Shown here: piece after piece, positions 18,331-28,875 of the stretch
How positions within the stretch are numbered: the first letter of the stretch is position 1
Layout of the letters: each line of letters opens with the position of its first letter
Origin: Caldilineaceae bacterium
GTDB taxonomy: Bacteria; Chloroflexota; Anaerolineae; Caldilineales; Caldilineaceae
DNA: 64,000 nt
Assembly: GCA_026645575.1 (NCBI GenBank)
Contig: JAPKMW010000060.1
Location: 1-64,000, forward strand
Reading direction: 5' to 3'
Translations under genes and position numbers: made by a program
The notes under the pieces: model-generated
Database searches by the model: none
The model's input: the letters and a program-made list of their open reading frames with translations, nothing else
Told to the model about the DNA's origin: nothing

Positions 18331-18373
18331 GTTATCATCTAAGCTGCTTATTCTAAGCAGCTTAGATGATAAC
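18331..18373. repeat. 20-bp perfect hairpin overlapping a possible start codon
   Basis: GTTATCATCTAAGCTGCTTA (18331-18350), loop TTC, then the exact reverse complement at 18354-18373. The first ATG of the histidine kinase frame (18366) lies in the right arm. It may terminate larB transcription or hide the kinase start. Confidence 0.8.
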
Positions 18374-19277
18374 AAACGATGAACCCTATGTGACGGCTAC
18401 GGCAATTGACGGAAAATTCGCAGTTTTTGCGCGAATTGCGAACATTGTTTGGGAAAACAGGAACTACGAAGGGCTGCCAATAGTTTCTGTAGGTATGATA
18501 CGCACGATAGAGCAAACCTACCCCTTGCAACCCACTGTTCAGCAACACGAAAACTTTGCGCGACTGCTTATACATGATATGCGCAATCCGCTTTCCGGGA
18601 TTGTCCTCTATACGCAGCTACTGCAAACACGCGCTGAATGCACTGCGGAGCAAGAACGCTTCCTAAGCCAAATTCTGGCCGAAGCACAGCGGCTCCGCAC
18701 GCTCCTCGATCAGATGCAGTTGCTCAATAAGCTCCAGCAAGGGCAGCCATGTTTGCACCGCCAACGAACCGATCTACGGGCGCTCCTACGCGAATCCGTC
18801 AGCAAGTGTGAGTCATCAGCACTCTTGCATGGCAAGGAACTGCTAGTCACAGTTCCAACCGCGCCCATCCCACAACTACTTGTCAATCGCCCCCTGTTAC
18901 AGCATCTGCTAGACATTGTACTCAATCATGCCATTCATTTTACACCGGAATGCGCCCTGATCACGGTTGAGATGGCCGTAACCGTTGATGTCCTACACAG
19001 AGGCAGCTTGTACAAAGAGAGCAGGTGCCCTGTAATACAATTGACGATCATCGATCAGGGGCCGCCGCTACCGGCGCAGGTTTTAACCGACCTCTATAAA
19101 TTTGTCGAAGAGTGGGATGTGATTGTCGCTGACCGTGCCGGAATTGGCCTGAGTTTGGCCCTCTGCCAAATGATTGCGGAAGTGCACGAGGGTGCGCTTG
19201 GCATCACCAACCACCAGCCCCAAGGGGTTTGCTATCGGTTGACGCTGCCGATCCCCGACAACGAATGGACGCCTTAG
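18366..19277 (+). CDS. Sensor histidine kinase
   Basis: Up to 303 residues. The dimerisation/phosphorylation box is ARLLIHDMRNPLSGIVLYTQ with the phospho-accepting His in 'IHDMRNP'. The ATPase half has a weak N box (LLDIVLNHAIHF), a G1 box at TIIDQGPP and G2 at GIGLSLALCQMIAEVHEG. No transmembrane or sensor domain is seen, so it is a soluble kinase. The start is uncertain: ATG 18366 sits in a hairpin and the first 43 residues are not protein-like; ATG 18495 may be the true start. No response regulator gene is adjacent. Confidence 0.75.
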   Translation: MITNDEPYVTATAIDGKFAVFARIANIVWENRNYEGLPIVSVGMIRTIEQTYPLQPTVQQHENFARLLIHDMRNPLSGIVLYTQLLQTRAECTAEQERFLSQILAEAQRLRTLLDQMQLLNKLQQGQPCLHRQRTDLRALLRESVSKCESSALLHGKELLVTVPTAPIPQLLVNRPLLQHLLDIVLNHAIHFTPECALITVEMAVTVDVLHRGSLYKESRCPVIQLTIIDQGPPLPAQVLTDLYKFVEEWDVIVADRAGIGLSLALCQMIAEVHEGALGITNHQPQGVCYRLTLPIPDNEWTP

Positions 19278-21069: not shown

Positions 21070-23172
21070 CTAAATTCTCCTGGTATAACGGTTGCGCAGC
21101 AAAACAGCGCTGGCGTTGAGCGTCAGTAACAAGACAAGCAGCACAACAATGGCCGCCGCCGCAATATTGCGGAACTCATCTTGGGGCCGTGAAGTCCACT
21201 GGTAGATTTGAATTGGCAAGGTGGTAAATTTCGAGAAAGGACCGCTCGGATCCACCACGATAAAGGTCGAGGCGCCAATGACAACCAAGGGCGCGGTTTC
21301 ACCCAGTGCCCGCGAGATCGCCAGAATAGTTCCGGTCAGGATGCCGGGCAGCGCGTTGGGCAGCACATGGTGCCACACCGTCTGCCACTTAGTTGCGCCC
21401 AAGCCGAAGCTGGCCTGACGCAACGAAGCCGGCACTGCCTTAATCGCTTCACGCGCATTGATGATGATCAACGGCAGGATCAGCAAGCCCAAGGTTAGAC
21501 CAGCCGCAAGCACCGTGCGCCCGTTGGCGGTGGTCGGGTCGGCGGCGCCAAAGAGGCTGCCACTGGTCAGCGGCTCCAGAATGCGCACAAAGACGGCCAA
21601 CCCCAACAGACCATAGATGATCGACGGGACGCCGGCCAGGTTGTTAATGTTGGTCTCAATCAGCCGGTTGAGGCGATTATTTTCGGCATACTCTTCCAAA
21701 TAGACAGCGGCGCCCACACCAATCGGCAGCGAGAAGAGAATCGTAATCAAAATCACCCAAAGCGACCCAAGGAGCGCTGTGCGCACGCCGGACTGTTGGG
21801 GTAGCGGCGACTGGGTGTTGGTGAGAAAATCGGGCGAAAGCCAGCTACGGAAGATCAATTGTCCATTGGAAACTTCAGCAGCAGCCACCTCAATCTCTGA
21901 GGGCAAAAAGATCGAATCGCGTAAAGACCAGGAGCGTACAACTACCGGCTCGACGACGCGCTCTAAGACTAGATTATAGACACTCTCTTGCGACCGTTCG
22001 GCAAAGGGTTCATCATTTTCAAAACGGCGGAAGAGACCACTCGAGACGTTGGCTTGCAAGATGCTGACCAGCGCTTCTTTGGGCAATTGTTCAAGCGTTT
22101 GCTCCGAAACGGCTTCGACAAAGAAATCCAAGGTGCCGCTGTCAATGCCCGGCACCACGCGGACAATCGGCTCCGCCGGCCAGGAGGCGTCCACCTCTGA
22201 CCAAGTCTGCGCCGTTGAAAAGAAGATCTGGCGCAATTGCGCCGTCGTCACGTTGGAGAGAAAGCTGTTCTGGGCGCTGACCACGACGGCCAGGGCATCG
22301 GCGCCGACCCGCAATTCAATTGGCGTCAACCGATTCTGGGCGCACAGCTCACTTTCAGCACGCGTGATCGCCCGGCTGGCATTGGCAATATCCACCCCTT
22401 GGTTGTCACAGAAACGGGCCAGGCCGGCTTTGGTGCCGATGTTCTCAATGGTGATCGCGCCGCCAAAACCGCTGCCCTTAAATTGCTCAGCCAAACGCGC
22501 CGTGAGCGGGTAGACCGTTGAACTGCCAGCCACCATGATCTCCCCTGCGGTGGCGTCGCCGGCGGCGGTTGCGGCTTGAAGCGCGCTGAGGTTGCCCTGA
22601 ATCGTCTCTTCGGTGGTCGGGAAATAACCAACCGCGCCAATTTCCTGATTGACATTGGTCATGTAATGGTTTAGGAAAGCGGCAACTTGCGGCTTATCAG
22701 TCAAGATCTTGGCCGTCGTATAAAGATAGAGCGGGCGGGCCAGGCCATATTCATTACTATTGATGCTATCCGCGCTCGGCGCCACGCCATCAATGCTCAA
22801 GGCTTTCAATTGCTCGGTCTCGCCCTGATAATAGGCGTAACCGAAGAAGCCAATCGCATTGGGGTTATCAACAATCCCGGCCACCAGATCATCATCATTT
22901 TCACTGGAGATGGTATTCGGGACAGCCAACAACTGTTCTTCCGCATAGGCCAACACAATGGCTTCCGGGTCGATCTTGTTCTGCACCACTACATAGCCAA
23001 ACGCGCCGTTAATGATGTTATAGAGCAAGGCCAGCAGTGCAACAATGCCAACCATCGTTGCCAAGAGAAAGAGACTTTGCCAGACAAAGCCACGGCGACG
23101 GCGACCGGCGACCTGCTCGCGCATGGCATCGCCAACCGGGAAGGGTGGTTGTAAGGATGAATTGTCGGCCAT
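21070..23172 (-). CDS. pstA: PstA permease with an inserted, circularly permuted PstS-like domain
   Basis: 700 residues, more than twice a usual PstA (~280-300). Residues 30-55 are the first membrane helix. Residues ~88-195 match the C-terminal part of PstS ([41 protein letters not shown]); residues ~208-358 then match its N-terminal part ([13 protein letters not shown] at 212-224, DIANASRAI at 261-269, [11 protein letters not shown] at 341-351). The order is thus swapped relative to the PstS encoded nearby. Phosphate-contacting phrases (GSST, ASR, SGT) are kept. Residues ~460-695 form the normal PstA permease ([41 protein letters not shown]). The start overlaps the pstC stop (TAATG). Confidence 0.93.
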
Positions 23173-24170
23173 TAATCGTACTCCTCACGAAAGCGCGCCA
23201 CAATGATGCGGCTAATGATATTCAAACCCAGGGTGATAAAGAAGAGCAACAGACCAATGGCAAAGAGGCTGGCGTAGTCAATCGAGTCATAGCTCAGATC
23301 GCCGCCGCTAATGCGCACAATGTGGCCGGTCATCGTCTCGGCTGCTTTAAAGGGGTTGATGATGCCAAAGTTGGTAAAGGCTTCGCCCCAACTGTTAAAG
23401 TTGCGCGGGCCGGCGCCGGCAGCGACAGCCACAACCATCGTTTCGCCTACGGCGCGCGACATGGCAACAATTACCGCTGCTGCAATGCCGGATAGAGCCG
23501 CCGGCAACACAATGCGTACCGAGGTTTCCAGTTTGGTGGCGCCGAGACCAAAGGCGGCTTCGCGCAAGGAGCGCGGCACAGCCGTCAGCGCGTCTTCACT
23601 CATGGAAGTGACCAAGGGCAAAATTAGAATGCCGATGACGATGCCAGCCGAGGCGGTATTGTAAATTTCCACGACACCATCGCCAAAGATGTTGCGCAGA
23701 ATCGGCGTCATAAAGGTCAGGGCAAAGTAGCCATAGACAATGGTGGGAATGCCCGCCAGCACTTCCAAAATCGGCTTCAAAATGCCCCGCATACGGGGCG
23801 AGGCATATTCACTCAGATAGATGGCAATCATCAAGCCAAGGGGCAGCGCAATCAGCATAGCGACAAAACTGGTTGTTAAGGTGGCAATCAAGAGCGGCCA
23901 GATGCCAAATTCGCCAATCGCCGGTTGCCATTTTACTTTGGTAATCGTATCTAAAAGCGTCACTTCGGGCAGTTGAAAGAAGAGCAACGCCTCTCGGCCC
24001 AGCACATATAAAATGCCGACCGTAGTCAGTACGGAAATTGCGCCACATAAAAACAGCACAACCTGGATGATTCGCTCACCAATGCGTAAGCGGCGCTGCA
24101 AGCTAAAAGGCGGCGCCGTCACGGCCACATTACGTCCAAGTGTTGCTGACGCCGATAGTTCACTTTGCAT
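23172..24170 (-). CDS. pstC: PstC, phosphate ABC transporter permease
   Basis: 332 residues from MQSELS (GGGAGTGG upstream; a GTG/ATG 18 bases earlier is less likely). Six membrane helices and the ABC-permease coupling loop [20 protein letters not shown] are visible, with [15 protein letters not shown] typical of PstC. Forms the transmembrane channel with PstA. It has a short cytoplasmic N-terminus of about 30 residues. Overlaps pstA by one base. Confidence 0.95.
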
Positions 24171-24208
24171 TATTCCACTCCCATTCAAAAACTAGCGAAT
24201 AAGCCAAA

Positions 24209-24316: not shown

Positions 24317-25402
24317 TTATTGCATGGCCGCAACCAGATGGCTCTTGGCTTCTTCTAGCGCCGCATCCGGGGCCGGGAAGTAGCCAGCGCCAATCACTTC
24401 TTCGTCAACATAGGTCAGGTAGAAGTTGATGAAAGCGCCAACCTGCGGCTTTTCGTTAATAATGGCCGCATCCGAGTAGATGAAGAGCGGGCGAGCCAAC
24501 GGGTAGGTGCCGTTGTCTACATTCTCAACCGTGCCTTCAACACCATTAACCGTGGACAACTTCAGGGCGCCGGTATTTTCGTTGTAGTAGGCATAGCCGA
24601 AGTAACCGATGGCATTCTTGTCACCTTGCACACCTTGTGACAAAACATTGTCATTTTCGCTCAGTTGCAGGTTGCCAGCATCAAGCAATTTGGCTGAGCC
24701 TTCGTCACCAAAGGTCTCTTCCATGACCGCTTCGACGAAATAGTCGAAGGTGCCGCTGTCGGTGCCGGGGCTGAAGCGCAGCACCGGTTCGGCCGGCCAG
24801 CTCGGATCTACATCCGACCAGTTCACTACATCAGCCGAGAAGAGTTTGGCAACTTGTTCAACCGTCAAATCACTTACCCAGTCATTGGCCGGGTTCAACA
24901 CAATGGCTAACGCATCGGTGCCAACGCGGAATTCAATTGGTTCGCGGTTGATGGCTTTGCAACTTTCGATTTCGGTATCGCGGATCGGGCGGCTGGCATT
25001 GGCAATGTCAGTTTCGCCGGCGACGCAGAAGCGCTCGAAACCGGCGCCAGTGCCAACGCTGTCAATGGTGATGTTGCCAGCATAGCCTTCGTCAACAAAG
25101 CGATTGGCCATCGCTTCGGTCAGCGGGAAGACCGTGGAGCTGCCGGCAGTGATAATGTCACCGGTCACTTCCAACGGGTTGACTTCCGGCAATTCGACCA
25201 TGCCGCCGGCCGCCGCCGTCTCGGTGGTGGCAACGGTTTCCGTCATGGCAACGGTCTCCGTCATGGCTTCACTAGCCGCTGGGGCCGCTTCTTCTTTGGT
25301 AGCTTCAGCCGCGGGGGCCGCCGGAGCGGTGGCAGCCGGGGCGCAAGCAGCCAGGGCTAACACCAGCACAAGCAACAACATGAAAATTCTAGTACGAAAC
25401 AT
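24317..25402 (-). CDS. pstS: PstS, phosphate-binding lipoprotein
   Basis: 361 residues. Lipobox LALAAC with Cys20, then an Ala/Pro/Thr/Glu-rich linker with a repeated MTETVA unit. The mature domain is a type II binding protein in normal order: ITAGSSTVFPLTEAMANRF, DIANASRPI, PGTDSGTFDYFVEA, NAIGYFGYAYY, YPLARPLFIY and GAGYFP at the end. GSST, ASR and SGT are the expected phosphate contacts. AAAGGAG lies 10 bases before ATG. First gene of the pst operon, with a PHO-box-like repeat about 150 bases upstream. Confidence 0.96.
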   Translation of the reverse strand: MFRTRIFMLLLVLVLALAACAPAATAPAAPAAEATKEEAAPAASEAMTETVAMTETVATTETAAAGGMVELPEVNPLEVTGDIITAGSSTVFPLTEAMANRFVDEGYAGNITIDSVGTGAGFERFCVAGETDIANASRPIRDTEIESCKAINREPIEFRVGTDALAIVLNPANDWVSDLTVEQVAKLFSADVVNWSDVDPSWPAEPVLRFSPGTDSGTFDYFVEAVMEETFGDEGSAKLLDAGNLQLSENDNVLSQGVQGDKNAIGYFGYAYYNENTGALKLSTVNGVEGTVENVDNGTYPLARPLFIYSDAAIINEKPQVGAFINFYLTYVDEEVIGAGYFPAPDAALEEAKSHLVAAMQ

Positions 25403-25726: not shown

Positions 25727-27640
25727 CTACGGCTCAGGTAGGGCGAGGGGGCGGTTCGTCACTTCGGCCAGCGGCAAGGTGAAGAAGAAGGTGCTGCCCT
25801 TGCCCACCCGGCTTTCGACCCAAATGCGCCCGCCGTGGGCCTGGACAATGTGCTTAGCAATCGCCAACCCCAATCCTGTACCGCCACCGGAGCGAGAGCG
25901 GTCGGCCTTATAGAAGCGCTCAAAGACGCGTGGCAGATCCTCCGGTGCAATCCCCACACCAGTGTCTGCTACCTTGACCAAGAGCGCCTGGTGATCGCTG
26001 GTGGTGGCGGAAACAGAAATTACCCCTTTGGGTGGGGTAAACTTAATCGCATTATGAATGAGATTTGTTAATACTTGTTCAACACGGCTACCATCGACAT
26101 AGACAGTCGGTAGTTCAGGCAGTGCTTCAACCTGTAGTGTCAACTGGGCACGTGTTGCTTGGGCCTGGAGCCGCTCCACAGCCCGGCGTAGGAGAGGAAA
26201 GGAGGCAGTTTTTGTTAATTGTAGGGAGGCTTTCCCCGACTCAATGCGCGCCAGGTCGAGTAACTCCTGCACCATCTGTGACAGGGCATCAACTTCCACC
26301 TCCATGTGACGCAGAAAGCGGTGGGCGGCTTCGCTATCATCCAGGGCGCCATCGCTCAAGGTTTCGACCAGGGCGCGCAACGAGGCGATAGGGGTGCGTA
26401 ATTCGTGAGAGATGTTGCTAATAAAATCCTGACGCACCGTCTGAAGTTGGTGAAGGCGCGTTAGATCCTGGAAGACGACCAGATAGCCGCGATCATCACC
26501 GCGCAGAAAAGGGGTGACAACCATGCGTAAAAAGCGTTCGCGATCCAATTCCAGGAGCGCTGTCTCATTCCCACCTGACTGCTGACAACGGGCAAAGACT
26601 TCAACAATCCGATGATCACGCACAGCTTGAACAAAGGTGTGTTTCAAGGCCCGTTCCGGCGTTGTCTTCAAAATTTGGGCCGCTGCCGGATTAAGCAGGC
26701 GAACACGCCCATGCCGGTTGACAATCAAGACGCCATCGGTCATGACATGGAGAACGGTGTGCAGCCGGTCTTTTTCTCTGGCCCGTTTGGTGATCTGCCG
26801 CTGCAATTTTTCCGCCATTCGATTAAAAGCGCGCACCAACTGCCCAATCTCACCACCGCTGAGGGAAAGGGTGCGCGCCGCCAGATCACCCTGGCTAATC
26901 CGTTCAGCGGCTTGCGTCAGGCGGCGGAGGGTTGCGGCCGTCCGCTCCACTTGCCAGATCAGCAGCGCAAGCATGAGGAACGCCACCAGTAGAATCGGTG
27001 GCATGATCGTCCCCCGTAATTGCGCTAGATTGCTTTGTATGGTAGGCAGAGGATAGGCGACGCGTAATAAGCCTAAGCGTTCCTGACCTTGCTGCACCAA
27101 TGCCACCACCACGAGCGCTTGCCGGCCTAAGACAGCATCGTATTGGGTTACGCTACTCAACCCTGTGGGCAAAGCCGCTTGCACCTCAGGGAGATCGCCA
27201 AGTTGCTCACCCACAGCGGCGCTTGTGTGCGAATCGGCCAGCACGTCACCGTCAAGCGTAAGTAACGCCGCATGAGCATTTGTCAGCAGCGTCCATTCCT
27301 GTAACCGGCGTTGGAGAGAGAGCGCATTTTCTTGCCAGACCGAGGACAGAGCGCCACTGCGAACAAAGCGCAGCGTCTGCTGCTCGGCAGTGGCAACCAA
27401 CCGGGTCAGATACCATTGATTCACCTGGTAGGAAAGATAGAGGCTGACGCCAATCATCAGGAGCAAAATCAGGATGGCATAGCCAAAGGCAGCACGCCAG
27501 CGCAGTTGCGTGAGTGCCGGGAAAGTTCTAAGATTTTCTGCGCGCCACGGCAACGACCAAAGGCGTTCCTTTTGTCGTACAAACCAAGGGGAATCAAACC
27601 ATTTCGCCAGGCGTGGACCAAAATCTAGCTTTTTTTCCAT
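25727..27640 (-). CDS. phoR: PhoR-type sensor histidine kinase
   Basis: 637 residues from ATG 27640 (GAGGAG 6 bases upstream). Order: membrane helix ([20 protein letters not shown]), extracytoplasmic domain of ~150 residues, second helix ([14 protein letters not shown]), HAMP ([20 protein letters not shown]), PAS ([20 protein letters not shown]), HisKA with [15 protein letters not shown], and HATPase_c with N box [14 protein letters not shown] and GGTGLGLAI. This matches PhoR, which senses phosphate through the Pst system and phosphorylates PhoB. It lies between pstS and phoB on the same strand. Confidence 0.88.
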
Positions 27641-27693
27641 GAACTCCTCATGATAAGTACACTGTTCAGTAAGTCTTTTGGGATTTTGGCGTC

Positions 27694-27818
27694 GGGCACG
27701 AAGTGTGGCAAACAAATTGGTCACACCGAAACCCATTGGTCGTGCCACACTTCATGCCCCTACGAGATGCCCCTACGAGATGCCCCTACGAGATGCCCCT
27801 ACGAGATGCCCCTACGAG
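27694..27818. repeat. Inverted repeat plus five 13-bp tandem repeats
   Basis: Arms 27694-27710 (GGGCACGAAGTGTGGCA) and 27743-27759 are inverted with one mismatch. The right arm runs into five perfect copies of ATGCCCCTACGAG (27754-27818). The array sits between phoR and phoB. Spacer-free and 13 bases long, it is not a CRISPR. Confidence 0.85.
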
Positions 27819-28122: not shown

Positions 28123-28875
28123 TTAGCCATCAAACCGATAGCCAACGCCACGCACCGTCACCAGACGCATAGGGTTGGCCGCATCATCCTCGATTTTCTC
28201 GCGCAGCCAGCGCACATGGACATCAACCGTGCGGCTGCCGCCATCATAATCCCAGCCCCAAACCCGTTCCAAAATCAGATCGCGACTCAAAACAATGCCC
28301 CGGTTGCGCGCCATAAAGACTAGGAGTTCAAACTCTTTTGGCTTTAAGTGAAAAACCACATCGCGGAAAATGACTTCATGGCGACTTAGATCAATGATGA
28401 GATCTGTAAAAACCATGCGTTCCAACGGGAAGTCGGCTGGCCCATTGTTCTCTTGTTGGGTCGCCGTCACTTCGGCGCGCACCAGCCGCACCCGGCGCAA
28501 CAAGGCTTTCACCCGCGCCATCAATTCCCGCATACTAAAGGGCTTGGTGAGATAATCATCCGCCCCTACTTCCAGCCCAACAATTTTGTCGATCTCATCC
28601 GCCTTTGCGGTCAGAAAGAGAATCGGCAGACTCATCTCTTGACGCAAGATACGGCAAACTTCAAAACCGTCCAACCCCGGCAACATTACATCCAGGATCA
28701 TCAGATCGGGATCGACAGCACGGGCAATTTCCAACGCCTTCAAGCCATCTTTGGCTGTGCTGACGCTGTACCCCTGTTTCGTCAAATTATATTCCAACGT
28801 ATCCAGCAGCGCTGGTTCATCCTCGACCACTAGCACCTTGGGGTTGCCCCCATTCGGCAGCACCATTGCAGTCAT
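28123..28875 (-). CDS. phoB: PhoB/PhoP-type response regulator
   Basis: 250 residues, OmpR family. Receiver: [20 protein letters not shown], phospho-Asp in [13 protein letters not shown], then [20 protein letters not shown] and the Lys of [11 protein letters not shown]-binding winged helix: [46 protein letters not shown]. It precedes phoR and pst on the same strand, so it is very likely the phosphate-starvation activator. ATG 28875 is used; ATG 28866 is an alternative. Confidence 0.9.

What the first reader, a model, noticed from the sequence alone, without database searches (positions are those of the whole stretch)
22099..22911. Circularly permuted PstS domain embedded in the PstA permease
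The 700-residue PstA carries, between its first membrane helix and the permease core, a PstS-like phosphate-binding domain whose C-terminal half precedes its N-terminal half. The separate PstS encoded in the same operon shows the normal order, and line-by-line phrases match in both (for example [58 protein letters not shown]). Ligand-contacting residues are kept. A permease-tethered second binding site could raise local phosphate capture or act as the sensor read by PhoU/PhoR. I do not recall this architecture being described.
Basis: partly seen in the sequence, partly recalled or inferred. Interest (0 to 1): 0.88.

Follow-up and report, generated by a model that had tools for sequence, protein, structure and literature searches.

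The report
Rearranged phosphate receptor inside its permease
In a group of Chloroflexota bacteria the membrane channel subunit that imports phosphate carries, inside one of its outer loops, a complete phosphate receptor whose two halves are in swapped order, apparently giving the pump a built-in second receptor beside its normal one.

Summary
Confirmed and extended. PstA (700 aa, window 21070-23172, minus strand) carries a PstS-like receptor after its first membrane helix, C-terminal half before N-terminal half. Alone it folds as one compact AlphaFold2 domain (pLDDT 95.5, pTM 0.89). All seven phosphate contacts known from the SAR11 PstS structure are present, as in 77 of 81 such domains. It is no misassembly: 66 of 235 database proteins share the order and none has the normal order fused to PstA; 14 of 80 genome loci carry it in one frame. 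Embedded domains group apart from PstS, evolve faster, and are missing in close relatives. Eight genomes, apparently two lineages, keep one lobe. A separate PstS lies upstream in 10 of 10 operons that could be read (and window). The permutation has precedents: pneumococcal PstS2 (4H1X) aligns in the same order. Most likely it is an accessory captive receptor; its role in transport or sensing is untested.

The parts
21070..23172 (-). pstA gene, 700 aa, with embedded permuted receptor domain
   Evidence: ORF; TIGR00974 PstA 255.7 bits, cut-off 193.45
23002..23076 (-). first membrane helix of PstA, about residues 33-57
   Evidence: AF2 helix 15-57 and hydrophobic sequence; limits approximate
22099..22956 (-). 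embedded circularly permuted PstS-type domain, residues ~73-358
22612..22917 (-). former C-terminal half of the receptor (residues 86-187), now first
   Evidence: blastp to PstS 238-359; pieces
22543..22611 (-). linker joining the former C and N termini (residues 188-210)
22099..22542 (-). former N-terminal half (residues 211-358), now second; carries the phosphate contacts S217 S218 T219 T247 S266 G346 T347
22294..22740 (-). N-lobe of the receptor (residues ~145-293), contiguous only because of the permutation; missing in one-lobed relatives
   Evidence: boundaries mapped by hand from 9JWY; one-lobed forms
21793..22098 (-). loop of PstA proper (residues 359-460), shared with un-inserted Chloroflexota PstA
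21085..21792 (-). permease core (BPD_transp_1 region)
24317..25402 (-). pstS, separate receptor with normal order, 361 aa, probable lipoprotein
   Evidence: TIGR02136 249.7 bits; lipobox-like LAAC read from the sequence, motif recalled
23172..24188 (-). pstC permease, 338 aa
   Evidence: TIGR02138
20246..21067 (-). pstB ATPase
   Evidence: TIGR00972
19452..20132 (-). phoU
   Evidence: PF01895, two stretches
25727..27748 (-). histidine kinase, HAMP-PAS-HisKA-HATPase (PhoR-like by context)
   Evidence: PhoR name is inference
28123..28875 (-). response regulator (PhoB-like by context)
   Evidence: PhoB name is inference

Best explanation
PstA holds a second, captive phosphate receptor. Shown by sequence and model: a PstS-type two-lobed domain, circularly permuted by joining its old ends through a short linker and opening a C-lobe loop, sits in the loop after the first membrane helix. 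Both attachments therefore run through the C-lobe, and the N-lobe is the free one. Shown: the phosphate contacts are kept, closely related pairs show purifying selection, and a separate PstS is kept. Inferred: the domain binds phosphate by closing its N-lobe onto the tethered C-lobe, holds it next to the PstC/PstA entrance, and feeds the transporter as an accessory donor, while PstS remains the main donor. Inferred origin: a tandem PstS duplication supplied a C-half plus N-half unit that was inserted once into an ancestral Anaerolineae pstA and later lost or trimmed many times.
Against: No binding or transport measurement exists. The domain evolves faster than PstS of the same genomes (mean pairwise identity 0.45 against 0.69 over nine genomes). 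Positions nearly invariant in PstS near the site are changed (Gly at 248 in 302 of 302 PstS, 4 of 81 embedded; Phe at 348 in 293 of 302 PstS, 0 of 81 embedded), so docking or ligand may differ. It is dispensable: absent in close relatives and reduced to one lobe lacking most phosphate contacts in eight genomes. The PstA trees need 8 changes or 14 changes of the full-domain state, so gene transfer is possible and a single insertion is not proven. The clearest scar, P0175, is read by eye; a C-lobe profile gives it only 2.7 bits.
Confidence: 0.5

Rival explanations
1. Built-in phosphate sensor: the domain binds external phosphate but does not deliver it; occupancy changes PstA and is read through PstB/PhoU by the kinase encoded beside it.
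For: Phosphate contacts kept in 77 of 81 while PstS-invariant positions next to the site changed; kinase, regulator and PhoU genes sit in the same cluster; PstS not replaced (10 of 10 readable operons, and window).
Against: Absence in close relatives, and one-lobed forms that keep PstS and PhoU in the same locus (L053 and L058), would break the sensor; kinase-PhoU-Pst coupling is general knowledge, not tested here.
Confidence: 0.2
2. Docking platform or lid: the tethered C-lobe contacts the separate PstS or the permease and positions it; phosphate binding is secondary.
For: Eight genomes keep C-lobe sequence without the N-lobe, and without the SGT motif, with dN/dS below 1 in six pairs (0.17-0.56); the C-lobe is the attached lobe.
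Against: In the majority form all phosphate contacts are conserved (77 of 81), which a platform would not need; dN/dS of the one-lobed form is high, so it may be decaying.
Confidence: 0.15
3. Receptor for another ligand (other oxyanion or organic phosphate) feeding the same channel.
For: Position 248, beside the contact T247, is Gly in 302 of 302 PstS but Thr, Lys, Gln, Ser or Arg in 73 of 81 embedded domains; CpPstS, of the same site type, weakly binds some organic phosphates (passages of PMC12421899).
Against: The direct phosphate contacts are unchanged in 77 of 81.
Confidence: 0.08
4. Decaying insert without function.
For: Fast evolution, absences and truncated forms.
Against: dN/dS 0.08-0.39 in the four closest pairs; six of the seven contact residues rank among the 30 most conserved of 256 columns, T247 (Thr or Ser) ranks 81; full form in 66 of 235 database proteins.
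Confidence: 0.06
5. Misassembly of pstS and pstA.
For: Only that the two genes lie in one operon.
Against: Same order in 66 database proteins and 14 of 80 genome loci of different isolates; the domain is only 49% identical to the neighbouring PstS.
Confidence: 0.01

Closest known systems
Canonical PstA (TIGR00974) and PstS (TIGR02136 / PF12849) of PstSCAB
   Same: Permease core, operon pstS-pstC-pstA-pstB-phoU, receptor fold and phosphate contacts
   Different: Receptor is a second copy, permuted, and inserted in the PstA loop
S. pneumoniae PstS2 (SP_2084, PDB 4H1X)
   Different: Free-standing protein; opened about 35 residues earlier (inferred), so probably an independent permutation; 25% identical
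TpMglB-2 (Tp0684), proposed Type Ic binding protein (PMC4990184; passages seen)
   Same: Natural circular permutation of a binding protein; its authors raise the possibility that the topology is an adaptation to membrane anchoring
   Different: Glucose receptor of the Type I fold; not inside a permease
OpuA and GlnPQ importers with covalently linked receptor domains (PMC11065425 passages; PMC8025302 only the abstract's start in the listing)
   Same: Receptor domain on the permease polypeptide
   Different: [quoted passage not shown] here it is inserted within a loop, permuted, and a separate PstS is kept
MalF P2 loop (recalled, no call)
   Same: Extra periplasmic domain in a type I importer permease
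   Different: Not a receptor fold (recalled)

Membership tests
PstA permease | NCBIfam TIGR00974 above its curated cut-off | tested here: met
   255.7 bits, cut-off 193.45, residues 445-696
PstA permease | Place between pstC and pstB in a pst operon | tested here: met
PBP_like_2 (PF12849) | Pfam gathering score | tested here: met
   111.7 bits, cut-off 27, two stretches
PstS family TIGR02136 | Curated cut-off for the whole protein | tested here: not met
   195.4 bits, cut-off 206.6, two stretches; so it is filed as a PstS-type domain, not as a PstS protein
CpPstS-type phosphate site | Seven contact residues and Pro in place of Arg | tested here: met
   S217 S218 T219 T247 S266 G346 T347, P341
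CpPstS-type phosphate site | Measured phosphate binding | not testable with these tools
   needs purified domain
Circularly permuted binding protein | Halves in swapped order, one compact fold | tested here: met
Type Ic binding protein (TpMglB-2) | Type I fold | tested here: inconclusive
   TpMglB-2 was not among the rows; by sequence the domain is kin to PstS, whose CpPstS member is called type 2
Importers with linked receptor domains (OpuA, GlnPQ) | Receptor covalently linked to the permease | tested here: met
   one ORF
Importers with linked receptor domains (OpuA, GlnPQ) | Receptor linked outside the permease domain | tested here: not met
   domain lies after the first membrane helix and before the core

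The most novel reading that the evidence does not exclude
A new regulatory or feeding module for phosphate import: a receptor fixed to the permease by one lobe, so the free N-lobe acts as a lid over the channel entrance. The permutation makes that N-lobe a single continuous stretch that evolution can cut out at the hinge, giving a natural series of full receptor, one-lobed PstA and plain PstA, in which the C-lobe has taken a role of its own (landing pad or gate for PstS).
Probability: 0.22. Interest if true: 0.82.

Novelty: new variant of a known kind. Interest (0 to 1): 0.66.

Why it matters
Binding-protein importers normally keep receptor and permease apart, or join the receptor beside the permease domain. 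Here a receptor is inserted into a permease loop and permuted, beside a kept free receptor. It gives a natural test of whether permutation serves tethering (an idea raised for TpMglB-2), of which receptor lobe must stay near PstA, and of how Pst couples occupancy to transport or signalling. The series of full, one-lobed and absent domains lets transport and sensing roles be separated in relatives.

Tried and rejected
Misassembly was rejected. A free-standing permuted PstS as the Chloroflexota ancestor was sought with the domain alone (lengths about 161-513 aa): among the 120 listed of 2372 hits none was a free-standing permuted protein; 101 had the normal order, 13 were pieces of tandem PstS and 6 looked like pieces of PstA with the domain. 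The tandem-PstS hits turned out to be two or three normal copies. An early view that genome loci were either full or plain was corrected: L053 and L058, counted as plain, are one-lobed. A simple gain-then-inheritance history does not fit the PstA trees: 8 changes, 14 for the full state. For one search I dropped 28 plain rows to keep the tree small, and L091 did not enter; both trees and that are quick trees with long branches (L012 above all), and a group on one side of a branch is a clade only if the root lies on the other side. dN/dS is given for the four closest locus pairs only; in many of the other pairs printed dS was infinite or very large. The C-lobe profile recognises mainly the second piece in L053, L114 and L116; its best score among 400 shuffled sequences was E 0.24. 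Which lobe of PstS faces PstA could not be settled: no paper on the E. coli PstSCAB structures was found, and no coordinates are available. An older review on linked receptors was not held. In the structure comparison the list was filled by permease matches, so the domain was folded alone. Literature: ten searches listed no description of a receptor inside PstA. Searches returned nothing; one search listed 8 of 60 papers, none on this topic by title; one search listed 10 of 14, none holding the term 4H1X. The library holds open-licence papers only.

Full report
What is there. The window encodes a phosphate gene cluster on the minus strand: response regulator (28123-28875), histidine kinase (25727-27748), pstS, pstC, pstA, pstB and phoU. 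pstA is 700 codons long. Compared with the PstS of the same operon it contains, after the first membrane helix, a match to the PstS C-terminal half (PstA 80-201 = PstS 238-359, 43%) followed by a match to the N-terminal half (PstA 186-395 = PstS 59-259, 43%; the receptor part ends near 358). In an alignment with seven un-inserted relatives, these have only short stretches in place of PstA 73-358. The permease part passes the PstA model cut-off; the receptor part passes Pfam PBP_like_2.

Is it real and how widespread. Of 235 database proteins listed by two searches, 66 share the order C-half, N-half, permease; none has N-half, C-half, permease; 48 have the permease alone; 5 have N-half plus permease and 1 C-half plus permease; the other 115 are tandem PstS. 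Both lists were capped at 120 rows. The one C-half case, P0163, is a trimmed form; the five others were not examined one by one and may be incomplete sequences. Of 80 loci fetched from named genomes (best 80 of 578), 14 carry the full order in one frame (L011 runs off its contig), one (L078) has it split over two ORFs, two (L053, L058) are one-lobed, one (L055) is cut at the contig end, and the other 62 showed no receptor halves in the PstA frame (not each inspected by eye). Record titles of the 14 name Caldilineaceae, Caldilineales, Promineifilum, Ardenticatenia, Anaerolineales, Anaerolineae or only Chloroflexi/Chloroflexota. In the class of the genome of L001, at least 23 of 396 sampled genomes carry it: 14 as one match over most of the protein, one partial, eight as two matches in one frame; at least eight more are one-lobed. 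The match list was cut, so these are lower bounds, and several of these genomes are the same as named loci.

Binding site. The SAR11 PstS structure 9JWY lists Ser32, Ser33, Thr34, Thr61, Ser83, Gly174 and Thr175 as phosphate contacts, with Pro169 where other PstS have Arg (PMC12421899, passages). Counting by hand along the alignment maps these to S217, S218, T219, T247, S266, G346, T347 and P341 of PstA: all are present. Allowing Ser or Thr at 247, 77 of 81 embedded domains and 301 of 302 PstS domains keep all seven; the exceptions are P0138, L010, L012 and L078. The 81 are 65 database proteins, the window and 15 loci, 80 of them distinct; one further protein with a partial half was left out. 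The 302 PstS domains include tandem copies and are 260 distinct sequences. By contrast, position 248 is Gly in 302 of 302 PstS and in 4 of 81 embedded domains, and position 348 is Phe in 293 of 302 and in none of 81.

Attachment. In 9JWY the N-lobe is 24-111 plus 279-324 and the C-lobe 112-278, with poor density at 224-227. Mapped on PstA, the opened loop lies in the C-lobe next to that poorly ordered stretch, the old ends are joined in the N-lobe, and the N-lobe becomes one continuous stretch (about 145-293). The domain is thus held by its C-lobe; that the N-lobe closes freely is inference.

Evolution. In a quick tree of 98 receptor domains the 26 embedded ones form one side of a branch (SH-aLRT 100), apart from 53 single and 19 tandem PstS domains. 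Linkers between the halves in a minority of embedded domains keep a motif like the start of mature PstS (loose pattern in 16 of 80 linkers found in 87 sequences, at least two of the 16 doubtful; 93 of 119 tandem linkers), best seen in P0230, which favours a tandem-duplication origin. The domain is missing in close relatives: P0122 is 96.7% identical in the permease part to domain-bearing P0038, and P0175 seems to keep receptor-derived residues at the junction, read by eye as a deletion scar, although a C-lobe profile scores that stretch at only 2.7 bits. Eight genomes carry a one-lobed form with loop lengths 228-235, against 380-439 for the full form (91 rows) and 100-159 for plain ones (118 rows; rows include duplicates). 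A C-lobe profile matches four of these contiguously (E 5e-22 to 3e-28) and the other four more weakly (E 2e-8 to 1e-6, in three mainly the second piece); the best of 400 shuffles scored E 0.24. The tree needs two changes for the one-lobed state; one group lies within a clade of full forms, the other on a long branch elsewhere. In the first four the SGT motif is changed to SPV or SPA, in the others it is also absent. dN/dS is 0.08-0.39 for full domains in the four closest pairs and 0.03-0.11 for the permease core, and 0.17-0.56 for one-lobed forms in six pairs. Over nine genomes PstS domains average 69% identity and embedded domains 45%.

How it most likely works. A separate PstS is present in all 10 operons where enough upstream sequence is available (window, L001, L002, L005, L006, L008, L010, L011, L012, L014; the contigs of L003, L004, L007, L009, L013 and L078 end at or just before pstA or pstC). 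So the embedded domain adds to PstS and does not replace it. Kept contacts plus purifying selection favour real ligand binding; absence in close relatives makes it an accessory. I therefore favour a captive auxiliary phosphate receptor, with a sensor or docking role as rivals. Transport, docking and signalling are untested.

Novelty. Receptor domains linked to permeases (OpuA, GlnPQ), permuted binding proteins (TpMglB-2) and, by my reading, a permuted PstS (4H1X) are known separately. Their combination, inserted within a PstA loop beside a kept PstS, with natural one-lobed derivatives, was not seen in the listings of ten searches of an open-licence library. Databases already hold such proteins, named simply PstA, with both Pfam domains marked. 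It is a new variant of a known kind.

Noticed in passing
PDB 4H1X (S. pneumoniae PstS2): The solved chain appears to be a free-standing circularly permuted PstS, opened at another point than the embedded domain; no listed paper says so.
   Followed up: partly
L053, L058, L099, L100, L101, L105, L114, L116: One-lobed PstA: the whole N-lobe of the embedded receptor is missing at the hinge, apparently in two separate lineages.
   Followed up: partly
P0163, residues 75-129: PstA keeping only the first C-lobe piece of the receptor, a further trimmed form.
   Followed up: partly
Tandem PstS proteins such as P0010, P0049, L002, L033: Two PstS copies in one chain that are identical or nearly so within a protein but differ between proteins, suggesting gene conversion or recent duplication; others have three copies.
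   Followed up: no
window 21793-22098: A loop of about 100 residues in PstA, present with or without the receptor in Chloroflexota; stretches of it are recognisable in some Spirochaetota and Acidimicrobiia PstA. Its role is unknown.
   Followed up: no
[not shown]
   Followed up: no
window 18366-19277: Short histidine kinase (HisKA and HATPase only) next to phoU on the other strand.
   Followed up: no
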